Numbered from the stretch's first letter, positions 4,232 through 58,240 are shown. The stretch: DNA of 64,000 nucleotides from Bdellovibrio sp. ZAP7 (GCF_006874645.1 NZ_CP030082.1:3968001-4032000); one strand, 5' to 3'. Translations and numbers: made by a program. The notes: generated from the sequence alone by a model not told the origin.

Positions 4232-4699
4232 ATGATGAAGGAATTTAAGACCTTTTTAATGAGAGGGAACGTTTTAGACTTGGCAGTCGGTATCATCATC
4301 GGTGCCGCCTTCACTAAAATCGTAGGCTCATTTGTCAGCGATATGTTGATGCCAGTTTTAAGTTTGGGCATGGGCAAAATCGATTTCTCGAATCTGTTTG
4401 TCGCACTGAATGGTGAATCTTATGCAACTTTAGCAGCAGCTAAAGCTGCTGGGGCGGCCACTCTTAATTATGGCGTCTTTCTGAATGCAGTTATTGATTT
4501 CGTGATTGTTGCTTTTGCAATTTTCATGATCGTAAAAGCGGCAAATCGCTTCAAAAAAACAGAGGAAGCAACTACCTCAACGAAGCCCTGTCCTGAATGT
4601 TTGACGACGATTCCCCTTGCGGCACGCAAATGTTCTGCTTGCGGAAGTTTGCAAACAAGTGGCTCGATAACTGGAAAAACGTCCTCGATGAACGTCTAG
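4232..4699 (+). CDS. mscL: Large-conductance mechanosensitive channel MscL
   Basis: A 155-aa inner-membrane channel that opens under extreme membrane tension to release solutes during osmotic downshock. The N-terminal helix and first membrane segment contain MRGNVLDLAVGIIIGAAFTKIV, the MscL hallmark; the second segment is VIDFVIVAFAIFMIVKAAN. The C-terminus carries a four-Cys zinc-ribbon-like tail (CPEC...CSAC), which is seen in some other MscL proteins but is absent from the E. coli protein. The start is one of two adjacent ATGs (4232 or 4235). For a predator that meets abrupt osmotic changes when it enters and leaves prey, such a valve makes sense, but that is inference. Confidence 0.93.
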   Translation: MMKEFKTFLMRGNVLDLAVGIIIGAAFTKIVGSFVSDMLMPVLSLGMGKIDFSNLFVALNGESYATLAAAKAAGAATLNYGVFLNAVIDFVIVAFAIFMIVKAANRFKKTEEATTSTKPCPECLTTIPLAARKCSACGSLQTSGSITGKTSSMNV

Positions 4700-4720
4700 T
4701 GTTTCATATTGAGACGTAAA

Positions 4721-4787
4721 CTTTCCCCCGAAAAGTGACGATAATAGGCACTGCAATTGCATCCATATATAGTCATCAGGGGGAAAG
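4721..4787 (+). promoter_or_regulatory. Leader with inverted repeat covering the ribosome-binding site
   Basis: CTTTCCCCC at 4721-4729 is exactly complementary to GGGGGAAAG at 4779-4787, which is the ribosome-binding site of the gene starting at 4791. A TATAGT -10-like box lies between the arms at 4768-4773. If transcription starts there, only the right arm would be in the RNA. The fold would matter only for a longer transcript reading in from mscL. Confidence 0.3.
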
Positions 4788-4790
4788 ACA

Positions 4791-6245
4791 ATGTATTCCA
4801 AATCACAGACGACGAAGAAGACATCTGTTAATCTTTTTATCAGCATCATATCTTCTTTAGTTATGATGGGTTACACAGCCAGTGCGCAAACTTCCGGGAC
4901 CTCATCGGGTTCTTCAAGCTCTACTTCTTCAAACAATCAAAACTCACAGCAGCAATATCCTTACCCAGTGATGACTTCTTATTCCGAAGGGCAAACGTGT
5001 AATGACCTACGCTCCAGATACAGCTCTGCCCGTAGAGATATGTTGAGACTTTGCAAAGATGCAGGCGCCGGTGCCAGTTGTGTGGATAAAATTGACTCCT
5101 GTAATACTGAAGCCAGTGATACTGGCGGCATCAATCTTTATCAAACTTTAGGTACGGCTGTGGGCGCTGATAATGCGTTGGGAACGGCACTTGGGGTTAT
5201 GGGTCAAAGCAGTAATGTGGGCGGTGGCTGCCCTCAATTCTCGTTTCAAGATTACTTCAGCAAGAAAAAAGAATATCAAGAAGACCTTGATAAAACTGAA
5301 GAAGACTTAGCAAAACTATCTGATGAAAAAGCGGATATTCAAGCCGACTTTAATAAAAAGATTTCTGACCTTCAAGAGGATCTGAACAAAGCTCAAGAAG
5401 ATCTGGAGAAAACCAAAGATCAAATCTCTAAGGACAAATTGGAGAACACACAGAAGCTTCAAGAAGCACAAAATGCTGCTAAAGATTCAATGCGCTCTCA
5501 AGCTACAACTTTGCTTGATCTGCACGGTAAGCTGATCACTTCGCAGCGTGATAAATCGCTCAATATGATTGCACTGACAGAGGCATCCGCAAAAAGAGCC
5601 TGTATGAAAACTGTGAATGAAATGAAATCGCAGTGGCAAAAAGATGGCGCATTGAGCGGATTCAGCTCTGGGACTATGATCGCCAAAGCTAAGCGCTTAA
5701 AGCAAGATTTGATCGATACATGGAACGATTGCATGACAGTTTACGATCAGAAAAAGCAAGCTTTACTTGAATCCAAAAAACAAGAAGAAGACATGCTTAG
5801 AAAGCAAATTCAAGACACCACTGAGTCTATGGCTCAAACAAAAGATTCTATGGATTCTGCAGAAGCGAATATGGCGCAAATGAATGCCTTGGCAGACAAG
5901 CAACAAACTCAGGCTGAAACTAATATGAAGAACACCCAAACTGCGATCCAAACTAAAATGACCGCAGCGAAACAAGAGTTGGAACAAAAACTTCAGACAT
6001 TGGCGACCAAGACTACGAACTACAGTCAAAAGATCAATCGCTTGAACACTCAATTATCAAGTCTAGGTGCTGTTCCTCCTTCCGGAGCGACAACGACTGC
6101 TCCGCAAGTAGCGGATGAAGTGTCGGGTCTTCAAGAAGAGATGAATGAAATCATCGCACAGGCGAAAGATTTGACCCAAGTGAACTGTTCAATTGGGAAA
6201 AGTGCCTCCAGTTCCTCAAGGTCCTCGTCTGGACTTAAGGAATAG
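4791..6245 (+). CDS. Secreted coiled-coil protein, function unknown
   Basis: I do not recognise this 484-aa protein. It has a signal peptide (cleavage near SAQ, about residue 33), a Ser/Thr/Gln-rich stretch, then a Cys-containing region (residues about 65-145) and a long heptad-rich coiled coil (about 155-235). A second helical region at about 320-410 contains repeated Gln/Thr/Lys. The C-terminus is Ser-rich. It has no membrane segment after the signal, so it is probably periplasmic or surface-associated. A strong GGGGGAAAG ribosome-binding site precedes the ATG at 4791, and a TATAGT box lies at 4768-4773. It appears monocistronic. Confidence 0.75.
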   Translation: MYSKSQTTKKTSVNLFISIISSLVMMGYTASAQTSGTSSGSSSSTSSNNQNSQQQYPYPVMTSYSEGQTCNDLRSRYSSARRDMLRLCKDAGAGASCVDKIDSCNTEASDTGGINLYQTLGTAVGADNALGTALGVMGQSSNVGGGCPQFSFQDYFSKKKEYQEDLDKTEEDLAKLSDEKADIQADFNKKISDLQEDLNKAQEDLEKTKDQISKDKLENTQKLQEAQNAAKDSMRSQATTLLDLHGKLITSQRDKSLNMIALTEASAKRACMKTVNEMKSQWQKDGALSGFSSGTMIAKAKRLKQDLIDTWNDCMTVYDQKKQALLESKKQEEDMLRKQIQDTTESMAQTKDSMDSAEANMAQMNALADKQQTQAETNMKNTQTAIQTKMTAAKQELEQKLQTLATKTTNYSQKINRLNTQLSSLGAVPPSGATTTAPQVADEVSGLQEEMNEIIAQAKDLTQVNCSIGKSASSSSRSSSGLKE

Positions 6246-52181: not shown

Positions 52182-52619
52182 TCACCCCCCTCCCAAAGAG
52201 TGAAAAAAATTTTGCAGCAAGGGACCAAAAAGAAGCAGCAGGAACGCAGGAAACTGAAATAAAAGCAGTGGAATTAGCAATAAGAAAGGAAGTCTCGCGA
52301 GCTTAGTACTGATCTCTTCCTGGCAGGCCTCAATCAGTTCGTCTTCAAGGCTTACGATTACATTATATATGGCCTCACCGCGCAGACCGCGCTCCAACAG
52401 CTGCAAAACAACCTGCCGATGAGGCGATGAAATCTCTTTAATGAGGCCATGAGTGTCCTTTCCTTGCTGCAGGAGCGCCAACCAACGACTCACCTGTTCC
52501 GGAAATTCTCCCTGATATCGTTTTAAATAATGAAGCACACCCGATTTGGTAGGTTGACCCTTCTCCAAACCGCGTTTCACGCAAAGTAATAACGATAACG
52601 GCGGTGCTACACCTTCCAT
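52182..52619 (-). CDS. TadC-like pilus/secretion membrane protein (short)
   Basis: A 145-aa protein that looks like the C-terminal half of a type II secretion F/TadC protein. It has one cytoplasmic helical domain (residues about 5-105) and a hydrophobic hairpin at the end (LPFLLLIPLLLFQFPAFLLLLFGPLL, read as two segments). Full TadC proteins are about 300 aa, so it is reduced. Its start overlaps the TadB-like gene by 13 bases. No TadA ATPase gene lies in the window. Confidence 0.6.
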   Translation of the reverse strand: MEGVAPPLSLLLCVKRGLEKGQPTKSGVLHYLKRYQGEFPEQVSRWLALLQQGKDTHGLIKEISSPHRQVVLQLLERGLRGEAIYNVIVSLEDELIEACQEEISTKLARLPFLLLIPLLLFQFPAFLLLLFGPLLQNFFHSLGGG

Positions 52620-53386
52620 TTCATCCTCCGACCCACGCTAAAAATAATAAAGAGACCCAAAACGAACATAAAAAGGGAGCCAAGAATTAAAAATCGGTGG
52701 TTCATAAAGCCAAATTGCGCAAATACAAATGCTAAAAGCGCGCCATAAAGGGCGGTGACAATTATCGCCTGCATCTTAATTTGTTGGGTCACTTGTCCGG
52801 ACCTACGTCGAAAATTTTCTTCCACTTTATACTGCCGACGAAGTGCTTTTGCCTGATCAAGAGCGCGTGTTTGCGAGCGATCTATTTCCAAGAGATCTGA
52901 CTGCAAATCCTTTATCACAGCGGATTTCGCGGCGATCTTATTTTCGGAAGTGACGATGGAATTGTAAATTTCGCGCAGCTGATTGCGCTGCCAACCGCTT
53001 TGACTTTCGATTGCCATATGCAAGCTCTGCCGAAATGATTTTCCTGCCTGAATTCCTAAAACCAGGTTATCAAGCACGGGGATCACTGCTCTTGAAAGTC
53101 TTTGGATAAGAAAAATGCGGAAAAAATCAGGAAAAAACTTTAAACTTATTAAAAGAATGCCGAAGAAAAGCCAGAGCGATACTGTTGAGTCAGAAATCGC
53201 GGCGATTAAAACGATCGCAAAGAAGTTCAAGATCATCAAAGATCTCAAACTTCGTTGAGAGATCGCAAATTCCCGCGCGATGTTGGCAAGAGAACGCTGA
53301 ACAAGTGCTTGTCCGATCATCGAAAGCATAAAAAAGGTGATCAAGAGGTGCCTCCACGGATCTTGTTGATCGCAAAAAATATGCAA
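52607..53386 (-). CDS. TadB-like pilus/secretion membrane protein
   Basis: A 259-aa protein of the type II secretion F-domain family. It has two N-terminal membrane segments (residues about 15-75), the F-domain stretch LDNLVLGIQAGKSFRQSLHMAIESQSG, a charged helix, and two C-terminal membrane segments. TadB works with TadC as the inner-membrane platform for Flp pilus assembly. The upstream region carries no further tad genes, only the divergent small Lys/Ala-rich gene. Assignment is based on topology and the F-domain motif. Confidence 0.7.
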   Translation of the reverse strand: MHIFCDQQDPWRHLLITFFMLSMIGQALVQRSLANIAREFAISQRSLRSLMILNFFAIVLIAAISDSTVSLWLFFGILLISLKFFPDFFRIFLIQRLSRAVIPVLDNLVLGIQAGKSFRQSLHMAIESQSGWQRNQLREIYNSIVTSENKIAAKSAVIKDLQSDLLEIDRSQTRALDQAKALRRQYKVEENFRRRSGQVTQQIKMQAIIVTALYGALLAFVFAQFGFMNHRFLILGSLFMFVLGLFIIFSVGRRMKWKV

Positions 53387-53491: not shown

Positions 53492-53611
53492 ATGGCAAAG
53501 AAAGCAGCAAAAAAAGCTACTAAAAAAGCAGCAAAGAAAACTACAAAAAAAGTAGCTAAAAAAGCTACTAAAAAAGTTGCTAAAAAAGCGACTAAAAAAG
53601 CTTCTAAGTAG
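53492..53611 (+). CDS. 39-aa histone-H1-like Lys/Ala repeat protein
   Basis: A very short gene with an excellent AGGAGG-like site (AGGAGGAGCAC) before the ATG. The product is built from repeats of AKKATKK and KKVAKKATKK; nearly half of it is Lys and the rest is mostly Ala and Thr. This is the composition of bacterial H1-like DNA-compacting proteins (Hc1/HctB type). It is followed by a strong terminator, so it is a complete transcription unit. DNA binding is inferred from composition. Confidence 0.75.
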   Translation: MAKKAAKKATKKAAKKTTKKVAKKATKKVAKKATKKASK

Positions 53612-53640
53612 TTAGACGCTGTACTAATTTAGTACATTGA

Positions 53641-53756: not shown

Positions 53757-54410
53757 TTAGAAATAATAAAGAGCACCAAATGTACCTGAAGGAATAAGTT
53801 GAGAGCGTTTAACTTCATACATCGCAACCACTTCCGCAAAGCATGAAATGCCGGCAAAATCTCCGGACAATTGATTGTATTGAAGACCCAAGGAAGCATT
53901 CAAAAAGTCGGTTCCGAAGCGGCCCGATTTCTTTTCTTCAGCGGTCAAAACGCGGTCCAGAATCCCCGATTCTTTCCAAGATCCAGAGTTCCCCATCGAA
54001 TTATACCAGCGAGAATATCCCGCCGTGTAATAAGGCGCGATATAATCGCCATCAAAAGCATGCTTCCATGCGAATTGGATCGAGTTATAACCTGGACCGG
54101 TGCCAAATCCGGCAACAACGCCGTTTTCATCTTCAAAATTGAACTCGGTCGCGATTCCAACAAGCCCTAATTGACCACCAACGGACATTCCGACGCCCAC
54201 TTTGCGGGCTTCACGCATATTTAATGTTGAAGCATACGTCATGCCAAGGCGTTCAGCGCGCATGGATTGGCTATAATCCTGCTCGATACTGATCGCCTTG
54301 CTAGATATTGATGAAGAGTCTGCGCTGAGATTGGACGTCGAGATTTCTGCCAGAGAAGTTGATGATGCCAACAAGATTATGGCTGCAACACCTGTGAAAC
54401 GGGAAAACAT
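53757..54410 (-). CDS. Outer-membrane beta-barrel protein, last gene of the Mla operon
   Basis: A 217-aa exported protein. It has a signal peptide (residues 1-21, ending SLA), then a Ser-rich segment of about 30 residues. Amphipathic strands with aromatic ends follow, and the last residues are GALYYF. The terminal Phe and strand pattern fit a small outer-membrane barrel. It starts 24 bases after the MCE-protein gene and precedes the operon terminator. It does not resemble MlaA. I infer that it could be an outer-membrane partner of the lipid transporter, but no motif proves this. Confidence 0.75.
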   Translation of the reverse strand: MFSRFTGVAAIILLASSTSLAEISTSNLSADSSSISSKAISIEQDYSQSMRAERLGMTYASTLNMREARKVGVGMSVGGQLGLVGIATEFNFEDENGVVAGFGTGPGYNSIQFAWKHAFDGDYIAPYYTAGYSRWYNSMGNSGSWKESGILDRVLTAEEKKSGRFGTDFLNASLGLQYNQLSGDFAGISCFAEVVAMYEVKRSQLIPSGTFGALYYF

Positions 54411-54434
54411 AAGGGCCTCCTTTTAGCTCAGGAT

Positions 54435-55211
54435 CTAAAAGATACGGGCTCTGACACCTTCTTCTTGAAGAAACTTTTTGATTGCCGGGGCATCCATAGG
54501 TTCCAAGCGGAAAAGAAGTTTATGAACCAAATCATACGTGTCTTCAGCCTTTTTAGATCGAAGATTCGTCGTAAAATATGCCATGTCATCGCTGATTTTG
54601 ACTGCATTATCAAGCAATCTGGATACTTCGCGGTTTTTTGTCGTTTTATCCAATAATACCAGAGTGCGATTAAAGTTTGTCGTCAAAGCATCCAGCTGTT
54701 TGATCGTATTTGTTACCGATCCTTCATTTTTTTCCAGGATTTCGATAACTTTTCCAGCCAATCCATATCCTTGAGACAGGAGTTGATCGATGCGCGGAGG
54801 ATCTTCACCGCGAACATAGTCCCCATTTGCAAACTCACCGGCCGCTGCATTTCCAGGAGAGATCTCCAAGAACTTTTCCCCGATCACACCTGCAAGATTG
54901 ATATAAAATTTCGAATCTTTACGGACACTCGTCCAGGCTTTTTTATCAATGGTGATTGTCAAACGCAACTTAACCTCTTCACCATCAGCCATTTTATGTT
55001 CAGGATCAAAAGTAATGGATTTAACTTTGCCCACTTTGATACCCATTACACGAACGGGAGAACCTTCTTCAATTCCCCCAGCGAAGTTAAACATCACATT
55101 TAGTTCTTTAGTATTTGAGAATGGAGCAATGAAGCCCATGGCATAAGCAAATGCTGCGACCATGATTAGACTTACTAGAGCTAACAAACCGACCTTGGTT
55201 TCCACTTTCAT
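54435..55211 (-). CDS. mlaD: MCE/MlaD-family lipid-transport protein
   Basis: A 258-aa membrane-anchored substrate-binding protein. A single membrane segment (about residues 7-28) is followed by one MCE domain (about 35-115) with NVMFNFAGGIEEGSPVRVMGIKVGKV, the hallmark of MlaD/Mce proteins. A helical tail of about 100 residues continues to the C-terminus, longer than in E. coli MlaD (183 aa). It is predicted to form a ring that carries phospholipids between the permease and the outer membrane. It is the only MCE gene in this operon. Confidence 0.88.
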   Translation of the reverse strand: MKVETKVGLLALVSLIMVAAFAYAMGFIAPFSNTKELNVMFNFAGGIEEGSPVRVMGIKVGKVKSITFDPEHKMADGEEVKLRLTITIDKKAWTSVRKDSKFYINLAGVIGEKFLEISPGNAAAGEFANGDYVRGEDPPRIDQLLSQGYGLAGKVIEILEKNEGSVTNTIKQLDALTTNFNRTLVLLDKTTKNREVSRLLDNAVKISDDMAYFTTNLRSKKAEDTYDLVHKLLFRLEPMDAPAIKKFLQEEGVRARIF

Positions 55212-55229
55212 AAACGCTCCCGAAAAGGC

Positions 55230-55949
55230 TCAATAAAGATAACTAAAAGTATAAGACAAAATAAAATCGATAACAATAATTGCAATCGAGGCCACGACCA
55301 CCGTATTTGTAGTCGCCTTACCTACACCCTCAGCACCCTGCTGACAGTTGAATCCGAAATAGCAGGCAACCAATGGAATCACTCCGCCAAAACAAGCGCC
55401 TTTGATTACGGCAAATAAAACGTCTTTAAATTGCACGAATCTGTGCATAGAGCTGATGAACATACCGGGCGTGTAGCCCAAGTACGCCTGACTGATCATC
55501 ATCGCTGCGAACAAACAGGTCATATTGGAAACAACCGTCAACAAGATACCACCTAAAACACAGGCGAAAAAGCGCGGAATCACCAGGTAATTGATGGGAT
55601 CAATTCCAAGCATTTTTAAGGCATCAATTTGTTCTGTGATTTGCATCGTTCCCACTTCAGATGCATAGCCCGCACCCACTCGAGAACACAGTAATAGCGC
55701 CGTTACAATGGCTGCTAACTCACGCAAAATCAAAACAGCAGCAAATCCGGGAACCATCGCATCGTTTTGAATCACCATTTTCATGTGAAAAGAGGATTCA
55801 AGAATGGTCACAACCGCCGCAAAACAAACACAGAAAACAATGATGAAAAGACTGCGATTGGCGACAAAGTAAAGCTGTTGAAAGAACTCTTTACGGCGGA
55901 AAGGTCCAGTGAATGTTCCCCAGAAAGTATCAGCAAGAAGTGTCATCAT
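55230..55949 (-). CDS. MlaE-family permease (second)
   Basis: A 239-aa inner-membrane protein of the MlaE/YrbE family, with five hydrophobic segments and the EQIDALKMLGIDPINYLVIPRF motif. That motif, with its Glu, is conserved throughout MlaE proteins. The start overlaps the first permease by 4 bases. It is paralogous to that gene (same TEQIDA...LG.DP...PRF word) but the sequences have diverged strongly, as expected for a heterodimer. Confidence 0.88.
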   Translation of the reverse strand: MMTLLADTFWGTFTGPFRRKEFFQQLYFVANRSLFIIVFCVCFAAVVTILESSFHMKMVIQNDAMVPGFAAVLILRELAAIVTALLLCSRVGAGYASEVGTMQITEQIDALKMLGIDPINYLVIPRFFACVLGGILLTVVSNMTCLFAAMMISQAYLGYTPGMFISSMHRFVQFKDVLFAVIKGACFGGVIPLVACYFGFNCQQGAEGVGKATTNTVVVASIAIIVIDFILSYTFSYLY

Positions 55950-56728
55950 GAGCGGTATCCTCTGACCATTTGAAGAATCACATCACCCAAAAAGCTTGTG
56001 AACCAATCCATCACTACGATACAAATCATTGTAGTGACAGCCGTTGCCACCACCGCGCGACCGACACCTTTAGCTCCGCCAGTGGTCGTGTAGCCTTTAT
56101 AAGTACAAATAGTTGCTAAGACGATGGCGAAAACCAGGCTTTTTAGCATCCCACTAAGAATTGAAAGAGGATGAACGATCGTAGGAATGTGGCGCGTGTA
56201 TTCTTCTGGTGTTACGCCCGCAAACGCTTGCGACAAGGCCATTCCGCCGAATACCGACATCATCAATCCTGCTGCCAGAAGGAAAAAACTGGATATAACG
56301 ATGCCGATAAAGCGCGGAACGATAATTTCCTGCATGGGATCCGCGCCCAGGCAGCGAACAGCATCAATTTGTTCCGTTACGCGCATCGTTCCCAACTCTG
56401 CCGACGTAAATGCGCCTACTTTTCCGCTTAACATGAAGGCGATCAGCATCGGACCCACTTCACGGAACGTGGCACTGGTCGCGAGTCCGCCCAAGAATCC
56501 CAAGGCGCCAAACTCGCGAATAGGCATTGCAAATTGTACCGCCATGATCGCGCCCACAAAAAATCCCGCCATGGCTGTTGTTGGGAAAGACTCAGTTGAA
56601 ACTTTCCAGATTTGAACGAATATCTCGTGGGTTTTTAGCTTTTTGACAAAAATAGTGGATAAAATCTTCTGTAAAAACAAAAGTGTGCCGCCGATTTCAT
56701 CCAGTATATGAACCGTTAAAGCAATCAT
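55946..56728 (-). CDS. mlaE: MlaE-family permease (first)
   Basis: A 260-aa inner-membrane permease of the MlaE/YrbE family. The conserved word TEQIDAVRCLGADPMQEIIVPRF is present, along with GLATSATFREVGPMLIAFMLSGKVG. It has a longer N-terminal amphipathic helix than the second permease. The start overlaps the second ATPase gene by 4 bases. In E. coli two identical MlaE subunits form the pore; here two different ones are encoded. Confidence 0.9.
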   Translation of the reverse strand: MIALTVHILDEIGGTLLFLQKILSTIFVKKLKTHEIFVQIWKVSTESFPTTAMAGFFVGAIMAVQFAMPIREFGALGFLGGLATSATFREVGPMLIAFMLSGKVGAFTSAELGTMRVTEQIDAVRCLGADPMQEIIVPRFIGIVISSFFLLAAGLMMSVFGGMALSQAFAGVTPEEYTRHIPTIVHPLSILSGMLKSLVFAIVLATICTYKGYTTTGGAKGVGRAVVATAVTTMICIVVMDWFTSFLGDVILQMVRGYRS

Positions 56729-57453
56729 GCCAGCACCTCGGCCAAAAAGTCTTGTACCAGTGGAACTTCTGATTTTTTTAATTCAGCAGGTGTTCCCATG
56801 GCGACTATCTGTCCTTTATCTAAAACGATAATTCGATCCGCGACGGACAGCGCACAATTCATGTCATGACTGACCACAATCGAAGTTGTTTTCAAAGAAC
56901 GGGATAAATCTAAAATCAACTGATTCACCGCTGTCGTCGTCACCGGATCAAGTCCCGTGGTGGGTTCATCAAAAAGCAGAATTTTAGGATCAAGTGCGAT
57001 GGTCCGGGCTAGGCTTACACGCTTTTGCATTCCATAGGAAACTTGCGCTGGAAGTTTGTCTTCCACGTCCCTCAAATGCACCAGGCGTAAGGCTTTCAGA
57101 ACTTTTTCTTTAATCACTTCTTCGGGAAATTGATATTGACGGCGTAAACCAAAAGCGACGTTTTCAAAAATCGTCAGTGAATCAAAAAGAGCGGGATGTT
57201 GAAATACCATGCCGCATTTTTTACGAATCGGAAGATATTGTTCCTCGGAGAATTTTGAAACTTCTTCGCCGTCGATCCAGATCTCCCCTTCGTCGGGAGT
57301 TAAAAGACCCACAAGATTTTTCAGTAAAACGGACTTACCCGTTCCGGAAGTCCCCAGAATAAAAACGATTTCGCCTTCGCGAATAACTGCAGAGAGTCCA
57401 TTAAGAACTGTGCGGTCACCAAATCTTTTGACGATCTTTTTGAACTCTATCAC
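56725..57453 (-). CDS. mlaF: MlaF-family ABC ATPase (second)
   Basis: A 242-aa ATPase. Walker A is GTSGTGKSVLLK (the GTGKSVL form typical of MlaF), the signature-region reads VSYGMQKRVSLARTIALDPK, and Walker B is ILLFDEPTTGLDP. The SYGMQ variant of the usual SGGMQ signature is notable. It lies 19 bases after the first ATPase gene and overlaps the permease gene by 4 bases. Confidence 0.9.
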   Translation of the reverse strand: MIEFKKIVKRFGDRTVLNGLSAVIREGEIVFILGTSGTGKSVLLKNLVGLLTPDEGEIWIDGEEVSKFSEEQYLPIRKKCGMVFQHPALFDSLTIFENVAFGLRRQYQFPEEVIKEKVLKALRLVHLRDVEDKLPAQVSYGMQKRVSLARTIALDPKILLFDEPTTGLDPVTTTAVNQLILDLSRSLKTTSIVVSHDMNCALSVADRIIVLDKGQIVAMGTPAELKKSEVPLVQDFLAEVLA

Positions 57454-57472
57454 TCAGAAATTTTACGGGTTC

Positions 57473-58240
57473 TTATAAGACAGGGTCAAGCGCCGTCAGT
57501 GGACCTTGCAGAAGACCGCGTACAAACTGACGCACTCTTGGATCACTGTGGTTCTCGGTCTCTTTGGGAGTTCCTGTGACAATAACTTCTTGATCAACCA
57601 CCATCGCAATTCGATCTGCCATCTGATAAGCGCGATTCATATCGTTCGTGATTGCCACAACTGTCGAGTTATTTTGCTGCTGCAAAGTCTTAATCAGTGA
57701 AATAATTTTTTTAGAAGTGATAGGATCCAGACCAGCCGTGGGATCATCGTAGAAAATAATTTTAGGATCCAGAGCCAACGCCCGCGCTATTCCCAGGCGT
57801 TTTTGCATCCCCCCGCTGATCTCGTCGGGATACAAATCTCGTGCGTGAGGAATCCCCACGGCATCCAAGAAGCTCTCAGCTTTTTTTGTAATTTCCCACT
57901 CTGTCAGTTGAGTGGTTTCACGCAGAGGAAAACAGATATTTTCAAGACAGGTCAGAGAATCAAACAGGGCATTTTTTTGAAACAGAATTCCCATCTTTTT
58001 AAGCAGCGGCAAACGCTCTTTGTTGCTTAGCGTTAACCAGTCGTTTTGTTCAACAAAAACTCTGCCATCTTGAGGGGTTACAAGCCCTGATAAAGTTTTA
58101 AGTAGAGTTGTTTTGCCCTGACCGCTAGGACCCACAATCACAAAAGCTTCGCCGGACTTTATATCCAGATTTACGGAGCGCAAAACCACCTGTGAGTCAA
58201 AAGTCACAGTCACGTTTTCAAGACGTAGTGCACTCGTCAT
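57473..58240 (-). CDS. MlaF-family ABC ATPase (first)
   Basis: A 255-aa ATPase, first gene of the leftward lipid-transport operon. Walker A is GPSGQGKTTLLK, the signature is ISGGMQKRLGIARALALDPK, and Walker B is IIFYDDPTAGLDP, in which the usual catalytic Glu position reads DDP rather than DEP. That substitution suggests this subunit may have reduced ATPase activity and a regulatory or asymmetric role. It is paralogous to the following gene. Confidence 0.88.
   Translation of the reverse strand: MTSALRLENVTVTFDSQVVLRSVNLDIKSGEAFVIVGPSGQGKTTLLKTLSGLVTPQDGRVFVEQNDWLTLSNKERLPLLKKMGILFQKNALFDSLTCLENICFPLRETTQLTEWEITKKAESFLDAVGIPHARDLYPDEISGGMQKRLGIARALALDPKIIFYDDPTAGLDPITSKKIISLIKTLQQQNNSTVVAITNDMNRAYQMADRIAMVVDQEVIVTGTPKETENHSDPRVRQFVRGLLQGPLTALDPVL

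What the first reader, a model, noticed from the sequence alone, without database searches (positions are those of the whole stretch)
53757..58240. Mla-type lipid transporter with two different ATPases and two different permeases
The operon encodes two MlaF-type ATPases, two MlaE-type permeases and a single MCE protein. Canonical MlaFEDB uses one ATPase and one permease gene (homodimers) plus MlaB. Here no MlaB, MlaC or second MCE gene lies nearby. Paired divergent permeases recall YrbEA/YrbEB of mycobacterial Mce systems, but those share one ATPase. The first ATPase also has DDP at the position of the usual Walker B Glu, and the second has SYGMQ in place of SGGMQ, so the two may be functionally asymmetric. 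The transport direction and cargo could differ from Mla.
Basis: partly seen in the sequence, partly recalled or inferred. Interest (0 to 1): 0.72.

Follow-up and report, generated by a model that had tools for sequence, protein, structure and literature searches.

The report
Lipid pump with lopsided ATP motor
A predatory bacterium and much of its phylum carry a membrane-lipid transporter of the Mla/Mce type whose two ATP-burning subunits and two membrane subunits are all different, and whose motor appears to have been kept, across the phylum, with one working and one crippled ATP site, a design known from CFTR/MRP-type pumps but apparently not reported for this transporter class.

Summary
On the minus strand lie MlaF-type ATPase A1, MlaF-type ATPase A2, MlaE-type permeases P1 and P2, one MCE protein and a predicted 8-stranded outer-membrane barrel. 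These are not recent tandem duplicates. A1-A2-P1-P2-MCE recurs throughout Bdellovibrionota (71 of 144 genomes sampled). P1, P2 and A2 each form one supported clade, and one clade for A1 is not excluded.

A1 has also lost the switch histidine, and the three changes are complementary. A1 has Walker-B Asp, no switch His and a perfect SGGMQ signature. A2 has Glu and His but S-[Y/F]-G. So only an A1:A2 heterodimer builds one complete ATP site; its other site is triply degenerate. None of 105 A1 sequences has both Glu and His, and none of 112 readable A2 signatures has the Gly. All 41 canonical single-ATPase MCE paralogues used as controls have all three.

Best explanation: a heterodimeric MCE lipid transporter with one consensus and one degenerate ATP site, coupled to a homohexameric MCE needle and, in many lineages, an outer-membrane barrel. 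Heteromer, cargo and direction are inferred. The genome has no MlaA or MlaC. Occurrence outside the phylum could not be tested. New variant of a known kind.

The parts
57473..58240 (-). A1: MlaF-type ATPase with degenerate core (Walker-B D166, switch position N199) and canonical signature S142-G143-G (SGGMQ)
   Evidence: ABC_tran 3.9e-33; best NCBIfam MlaF 1.6e-55, below equivalog cut-off; motif numbering; 105 homologues
56725..57453 (-). A2: MlaF-type ATPase with canonical core (E163, H196) and degenerate signature S139-Y140-G (SYGMQ)
   Evidence: ABC_tran 3.7e-35; best NCBIfam MlaF 3.2e-61; motif numbering; 113 homologues
55946..56728 (-). P1: MlaE-type permease 1
   Evidence: MlaE 7.6e-59; phylum-wide one-clade subfamily
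55230..55949 (-). P2: MlaE-type permease 2
   Evidence: MlaE 2.4e-63; one clade, support 100*; His at the position of E. coli MlaE Val77 in 40 of 40
54435..55211 (-). Single-domain MCE protein: TM helix 3-24, MCE domain about 34-134, helices 141-257, conserved C-terminus KFLQEEGVRARIF
   Evidence: MlaD 1.2e-19; alignment; model, needle part low confidence; best full-length fold matches are Mce1 subunits
53757..54410 (-). Sixth gene: secreted 8-stranded outer-membrane beta-barrel of OmpA/OprF/OmpX-like fold, C-terminal ...YYF
   Evidence: AlphaFold2 pLDDT 90; Foldseek OprF 1.4e-5, OmpA 5.7e-5; directly follows MCE in many homologous loci

Best explanation
The operon encodes an MCE-type (type VIII) lipid ABC transporter whose inner-membrane core is a heterotetramer, one A1, one A2, one P1 and one P2, instead of the MlaF2E2 homodimers. 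In the head-to-tail NBD dimer, ATP site 2 (A2 Walker A/B and switch His with A1 signature) is complete and hydrolyses ATP. Site 1 (A1 Walker A/B and switch position with A2 signature) is degenerate in the Walker-B Glu and/or the switch His and in the signature Gly; it probably holds ATP for long periods as a hinge, as proposed for other degenerate-site transporters. The core feeds or drains a homohexamer of the single MCE protein, whose helical C-terminal half probably forms a needle towards the outer membrane. In many lineages this ends near the co-encoded 8-stranded barrel. Cargo is most likely a glycerophospholipid or fatty-acid-like lipid moved between outer and inner membrane, probably inwards as favoured for other MCE systems. 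Shown from sequence: gene content, conserved order, complementary motifs, depth of the paralogues, and (predicted) barrel fold of gene six. Inferred: heteromer, single hydrolytic site, needle, barrel contact, cargo, direction.
For: Complementary motifs: A1 n=105: SGG 105/105, Walker-B D81/E23/S1, switch N86/S14/H2/T2/G1. A2 n=113: Glu 113/113, His 112/112 readable, signature first Gly replaced by Y97/F14/H1 (first set of 58/59). No A1 has both Glu and His, and no A2 has the Gly. Control: 41 of 41 canonical single MCE ATPases (E. coli MlaF included) have E/H/SGG. Order A1-A2-P1-P2-MCE conserved apart from contig ends and one or two missed ORFs. P1, P2 and A2 are each one clade, 99*-100*. A1 diverges faster than A2 in 55 of 57 operons. 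The same substitutions define known degenerate sites: in MRPs Glu to Asp and the first signature Gly to Val (PMC9898250); in MsRv1273c Glu to Asp and switch His to Gln (PMC12038006). MCE full-length fold matches are Mce1 subunits, 1.9e-10; about 110 helical residues would give about 165 A if laid end to end. Barrel.
Against: No structure, ATPase assay or complex prediction was possible. A1 keeps Walker-B Glu in 23 of 105 sequences, so there degeneracy rests on the switch residue and the partner signature. Covariation between A1 switch and A2 signature is significant only without correction for phylogeny; with it there are too few independent pairs. MCE needle helices have pLDDT about 47-77. 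The barrel gene is absent or replaced downstream of MCE in several families, so it is not obligatory. One other single-ATPase MCE operon of the genome has an ATPase with all motifs degenerate, so motif decay alone also occurs in this family.
Confidence: 0.72

Rival explanations
1. Two homodimeric transporters (A1 with one permease, A2 with the other) share one MCE ring or act in alternative complexes.
For: Known MCE ATPases in MlaFEDB and Mce1 are homodimers (Mce1). Each permease alone keeps the MlaE charged cluster (R97/E98/K205/D250) in most members.
Against: An A1 homodimer would lack Glu and/or His in both sites; an A2 homodimer would lack the signature Gly in both. Only the heterodimer makes a complete site, and this holds in every operon examined. 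All five genes stay together, and only one MCE gene is present.
Confidence: 0.13
2. A2 homodimers, or A2 with another cellular MlaF, drive transport, and A1 is a non-catalytic regulator taking the place of MlaB.
For: A1 evolves faster than A2 and lacks catalytic residues. No MlaB gene is nearby, and the only STAS hit in the genome is below cut-off.
Against: A1 keeps Walker A Lys in 105/105 and SGG in 105/105. A perfect signature is useful only if it completes the partner's ATP site. A2 homodimers would have a Tyr/Phe signature in both sites.
Confidence: 0.08
3. An ordinary Mla-type transporter with neutrally drifting duplicate subunits; the motif differences have no functional meaning.
For: Gene duplication with mild relaxation is common; A1 has long branches.
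Against: The differences are confined to one composite site, with zero exceptions in A2 and no fully canonical A1 among about 100 operons in at least 16 family groups. 41 of 41 canonical paralogues have not drifted.
Confidence: 0.05

Closest known systems
MlaFEDB (E. coli, Pseudomonas, Acinetobacter)
   Same: MlaF-, MlaE- and MlaD-family subunits; solved MlaE/MlaF/MlaD are the best or among the best structural-database matches.
   Different: Two different ATPases and two different permeases; no MlaB gene nearby; no MlaC or MlaA in the genome; MCE protein longer (258 vs 183 aa) with a long helical C-terminal half.
Mce1 of mycobacteria (YrbE1A/YrbE1B, MceG2, Mce1A-F)
   Same: Two different MlaE-family permeases encoded side by side; MCE protein with MCE domain plus long helical part, best full-length fold match.
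   Different: Mce1 has a homodimer of one ATPase and six different MCE proteins (PMC9882608). Here two ATPases and one MCE gene; P1/P2 do not group with YrbEA/YrbEB.
Veillonella-type MlaEFD with barrel-bearing long MlaD (PMC10665443)
   Same: No MlaABC; MCE protein proposed to bridge the envelope; a beta-barrel at the outer membrane.
   Different: Barrel is a separate 8-stranded protein, not a 10-stranded C-terminal domain; ATPase and permease are doubled.
Heterodimeric ABC transporters with one degenerate site (MRP/ABCC, CFTR, TAP, TM287/288, BmrCD, MsRv1273c/72c)
   Same: Walker-B Glu to Asp, switch His lost and first signature Gly lost, all in one composite site, the other site intact.
   Different: Those are type IV exporters; this is an MlaE-fold (type VIII) system with a periplasmic MCE protein, and the pattern apparently evolved separately.

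Membership tests
MCE-type (type VIII, MlaE-fold) lipid ABC transporters | MlaE/YrbE permease, MlaF/Mkl-type ATPase and MCE-domain protein encoded together | tested here: met
   Pfam MlaE twice, ABC_tran twice with MlaF best NCBIfam hit, MlaD once; one operon
MCE-type (type VIII, MlaE-fold) lipid ABC transporters | Transport of lipid | not testable with these tools
   Inferred from family only
Mla pathway (MlaABCDEF) proper | MlaC shuttle and MlaA outer-membrane lipoprotein | tested here: not met
   No PF05494 and no PF04333 match in the complete genome, controls positive in E. coli and Caulobacter
Mla pathway (MlaABCDEF) proper | One permease and one ATPase gene forming homodimers, with MlaB | tested here: not met
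   Two of each; no MlaB gene nearby, only a sub-threshold STAS hit elsewhere
Actinobacterial Mce systems | Two YrbE permeases followed by six MCE genes, shared MceG ATPase | tested here: not met
   Two permeases but one MCE gene and two own ATPases; permeases outside the YrbEA/YrbEB groups
ABC transporters with one degenerate and one consensus ATP site | Complementary loss of catalytic Glu/His in one NBD and of signature in the other | tested here: met
   105 A1 and 113 A2 sequences; 41 canonical single-ATPase controls
ABC transporters with one degenerate and one consensus ATP site | Physical heterodimer with a single hydrolytic site | not testable with these tools
   No complex prediction or biochemistry was available

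The most novel reading that the evidence does not exclude
A phylum-wide MCE lipid transporter that is an obligate heteromer of A1, A2, P1 and P2 with one consensus and one degenerate ATP site, an MRP/CFTR-like motor evolved separately in the MlaE-fold class, coupled to a homohexameric needle and a separate small outer-membrane barrel.
Probability: 0.6. Interest if true: 0.76.

Novelty: new variant of a known kind. Interest (0 to 1): 0.64.

Why it matters
Degenerate-site motors are known mainly from exporters and channels such as MRP and CFTR, where the role of the dead site is debated. A conserved, apparently independent case in an MCE lipid transporter gives a comparison free of shared ancestry in the membrane domain. 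An asymmetric core would also help the open question of transport direction and step size in MCE systems, because each ATP site and each permease could be mutated on its own. It occurs in B. bacteriovorus (locus L170), where gene deletion is routine.

Tried and rejected
Recent tandem duplication: rejected by deep one-clade groups and conserved order. Common origin with YrbEA/YrbEB: not supported, but deep branches weak and long branches meet. Covariation of A1 switch and A2 signature as proof of contact: Fisher p 2e-5 on 98 operons, but only 3 independent pairs on the tree, so inconclusive. Search of other phyla: the single genome-contig scan returned 80 loci, all apparently Bdellovibrionota or unresolved/mislabelled MAGs from their titles; the genome search does not accept a centre in another phylum; plasmid records gave paired permeases only in the two Actinobacteria opened. 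Literature searches found no report of two ATPases or degenerate sites in MCE transporters, but the library is open-access only. Link with predation mode: present in all sampled members of the window's genus and absent from g2 (whose one-contig genome G005 matches epibiotic P. exovorus JSS in size), but also absent from f14 (which includes a genome matching periplasmic predator H. marinus in size) and present in many families of unknown lifestyle, so no simple link.

Full report
What is there. Window 53757-58240 (- strand) holds six tightly spaced genes: A1 (58240-57473) and A2 (57453-56725), MlaF-type ATPases; P1 (56728-55946) and P2 (55949-55230), MlaE-type permeases; one MCE protein (55211-54435); and a 217-aa secreted protein (54410-53757). 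A2/P1 and P1/P2 overlap by 4 bp. sucCD lies divergently upstream. The genome is one 4,123,562-bp contig, the size given for Bdellovibrio sp. ZAP7 (4.124 Mb, PMC11656739); that identity is an inference from size.

Not a lone curiosity. The P1 subfamily is sharply separated from other MlaE permeases: in the phylum search E-values run to 2e-46 and then jump to 7e-39, leaving 72 loci in 71 of 144 genomes by my count; in profile searches bits fall from 281 to 204. All 60 loci fetched have the order A1-A2-P1-P2-MCE except where the contig stops or a gene was missed by ORF picking, and 80 loci from named GTDB genomes show the same. It is in all 14 sampled members of the window's genus and in B. bacteriovorus kdesi (L170).

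Not recent duplicates. P1 (99*), P2 (100*) and A2 (99*) are each one side of a supported branch; A1 needs two changes on the best tree but one origin is not excluded. P2 falls nearer to a single-permease paralogue than to P1, with weak support. Mycobacterial and Rhodococcus YrbEA/YrbEB stand apart. The two-permease arrangement is therefore old here and probably arose separately from that of Actinobacteria, with the caution that deep branches are weak.

The key result. In ABC ATPases each ATP site is built from the Walker A/B and switch His of one subunit and the signature of the other. Over 105 A1 and 113 A2 sequences, A1 has a perfect SGG signature (105/105) but Walker-B Asp 81, Glu 23, Ser 1, and switch Asn 86, Ser 14, Thr 2, Gly 1, His 2. 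The two A1 with His have Asp or Ser at the Glu position. A2 has Glu 113/113 and His 112/112 readable but Tyr 97, Phe 14 or His 1 in place of the first signature Gly. No operon has a fully canonical A1 or a canonical A2 signature. As a control, 41 single-ATPase MCE systems (nearly all from the same phylum, E. coli MlaF included; the divergent xF1979 type counted apart) are all Glu, His, SGG. The defects thus all fall in one composite site, and only an A1:A2 heterodimer makes one intact site. In A1 the Walker-B and switch residues each changed at least six to eight times on the tree without giving a complete core. A1 is the faster-evolving partner in 55 of 57 operons. Sequences are related, so these counts are not independent trials; the breadth over at least 16 family groups is the better measure.

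Likeness to known degenerate sites. In MRP transporters the degenerate site has Asp for Glu and Val for the first signature Gly (PMC9898250); in MsRv1273c/72c it has Asp for Glu and Gln for His (PMC12038006). CFTR has Ser for Glu, Ser for His and His for the same Gly (own knowledge). The Bdellovibrionota variants hit the same positions.

Periplasmic and outer-membrane parts. The MCE protein has a TM helix, one MCE domain and about 110 helical residues (helical part low confidence), which laid end to end would give about 165 A. Its best full-length fold matches are Mce1 subunits. Its C-terminus, KFLQEEGIRARIF or close, is conserved across the phylum. Gene six is predicted as an 8-stranded barrel (pLDDT 90) of OprF/OmpA fold, with a signal peptide and a C-terminal aromatic; it directly follows MCE in many loci but is missing or replaced, for example by a signal-peptidase-like gene (my reading of the sequence), in others. 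It may be an outer-membrane partner; that is inference. The genome has no MlaA or MlaC, so a bridging mode is more plausible than a shuttle.

Function and direction. The family moves lipids; retrograde transport is the favoured view for Mla (PMC10212509) and import for Mce. Nothing here decides direction or cargo. P2 has an invariant His at the position of MlaE Val77 (40 of 40), and P1 varies at Glu98 and Asp250, so the lipid pocket may be asymmetric as well.

Limits. No complex was modelled; no wet data; no search of other phyla beyond one pattern scan whose best 80 loci were, as far as titles show, from this phylum. 'Not reported before' rests on an open-access library and on memory.

Noticed in passing
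L013 (own genome C1:1975500-1985500), ORF 4411-5121: A single-copy MCE ATPase with every catalytic motif degenerate (LLLDDP, VPGRLRK for SGGMQKR, SSYDE for SHD, Asp for Q-loop Gln), in an operon with its own MlaE and MCE genes; a homodimer of it should be inactive, so it may be a pseudo-ATPase or borrow a partner. Also in G118 (L218).
   Followed up: partly
L012 (own genome C1:701500-710500), ORF 4542-5909: MCE protein of 455 aa with a strand-rich C-terminal part, resembling the barrel-bearing long MlaD of Veillonella: a fused MCE-barrel in the same genome as the apparent split MCE plus barrel of the window operon. Not modelled.
   Followed up: no
G005 and other g2 genomes; f14 genomes: P1 subfamily absent from g2 (G005, 2,657,893 bp, matches the 2.658 Mb of epibiotic Pseudobdellovibrio exovorus JSS) and from all sampled f14 genomes (G008, whose main contig is 3,435,933 bp, matches 3.436 Mb of Halobacteriovorax marinus SJ); best A2 hits there are the single-ATPase paralogues.
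   Followed up: partly
window 54435-55211, C-terminus: The last 13 or so residues of the MCE protein (KFLQEEGIRARIF) are nearly invariant across the phylum, also where the barrel gene is absent; a likely docking end with unknown partner.
   Followed up: no
window 53493-53612 (+): Very short Lys/Ala-rich ORF (MAKKAAKKATKKAAKKTTKK...), histone-H1-like tail, just downstream of the operon.
   Followed up: no
window 52182-53386 (-): Two overlapping membrane-protein ORFs without Pfam hits; similar-length pairs (about 250 and 145 aa) follow the operon in many relatives.
   Followed up: no
L122: A GTDB genome titled Streptomyces griseus carries the operon at 67% identity to Bdellovibrio P1; almost certainly a mislabelled Bdellovibrionota MAG.
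   Followed up: no
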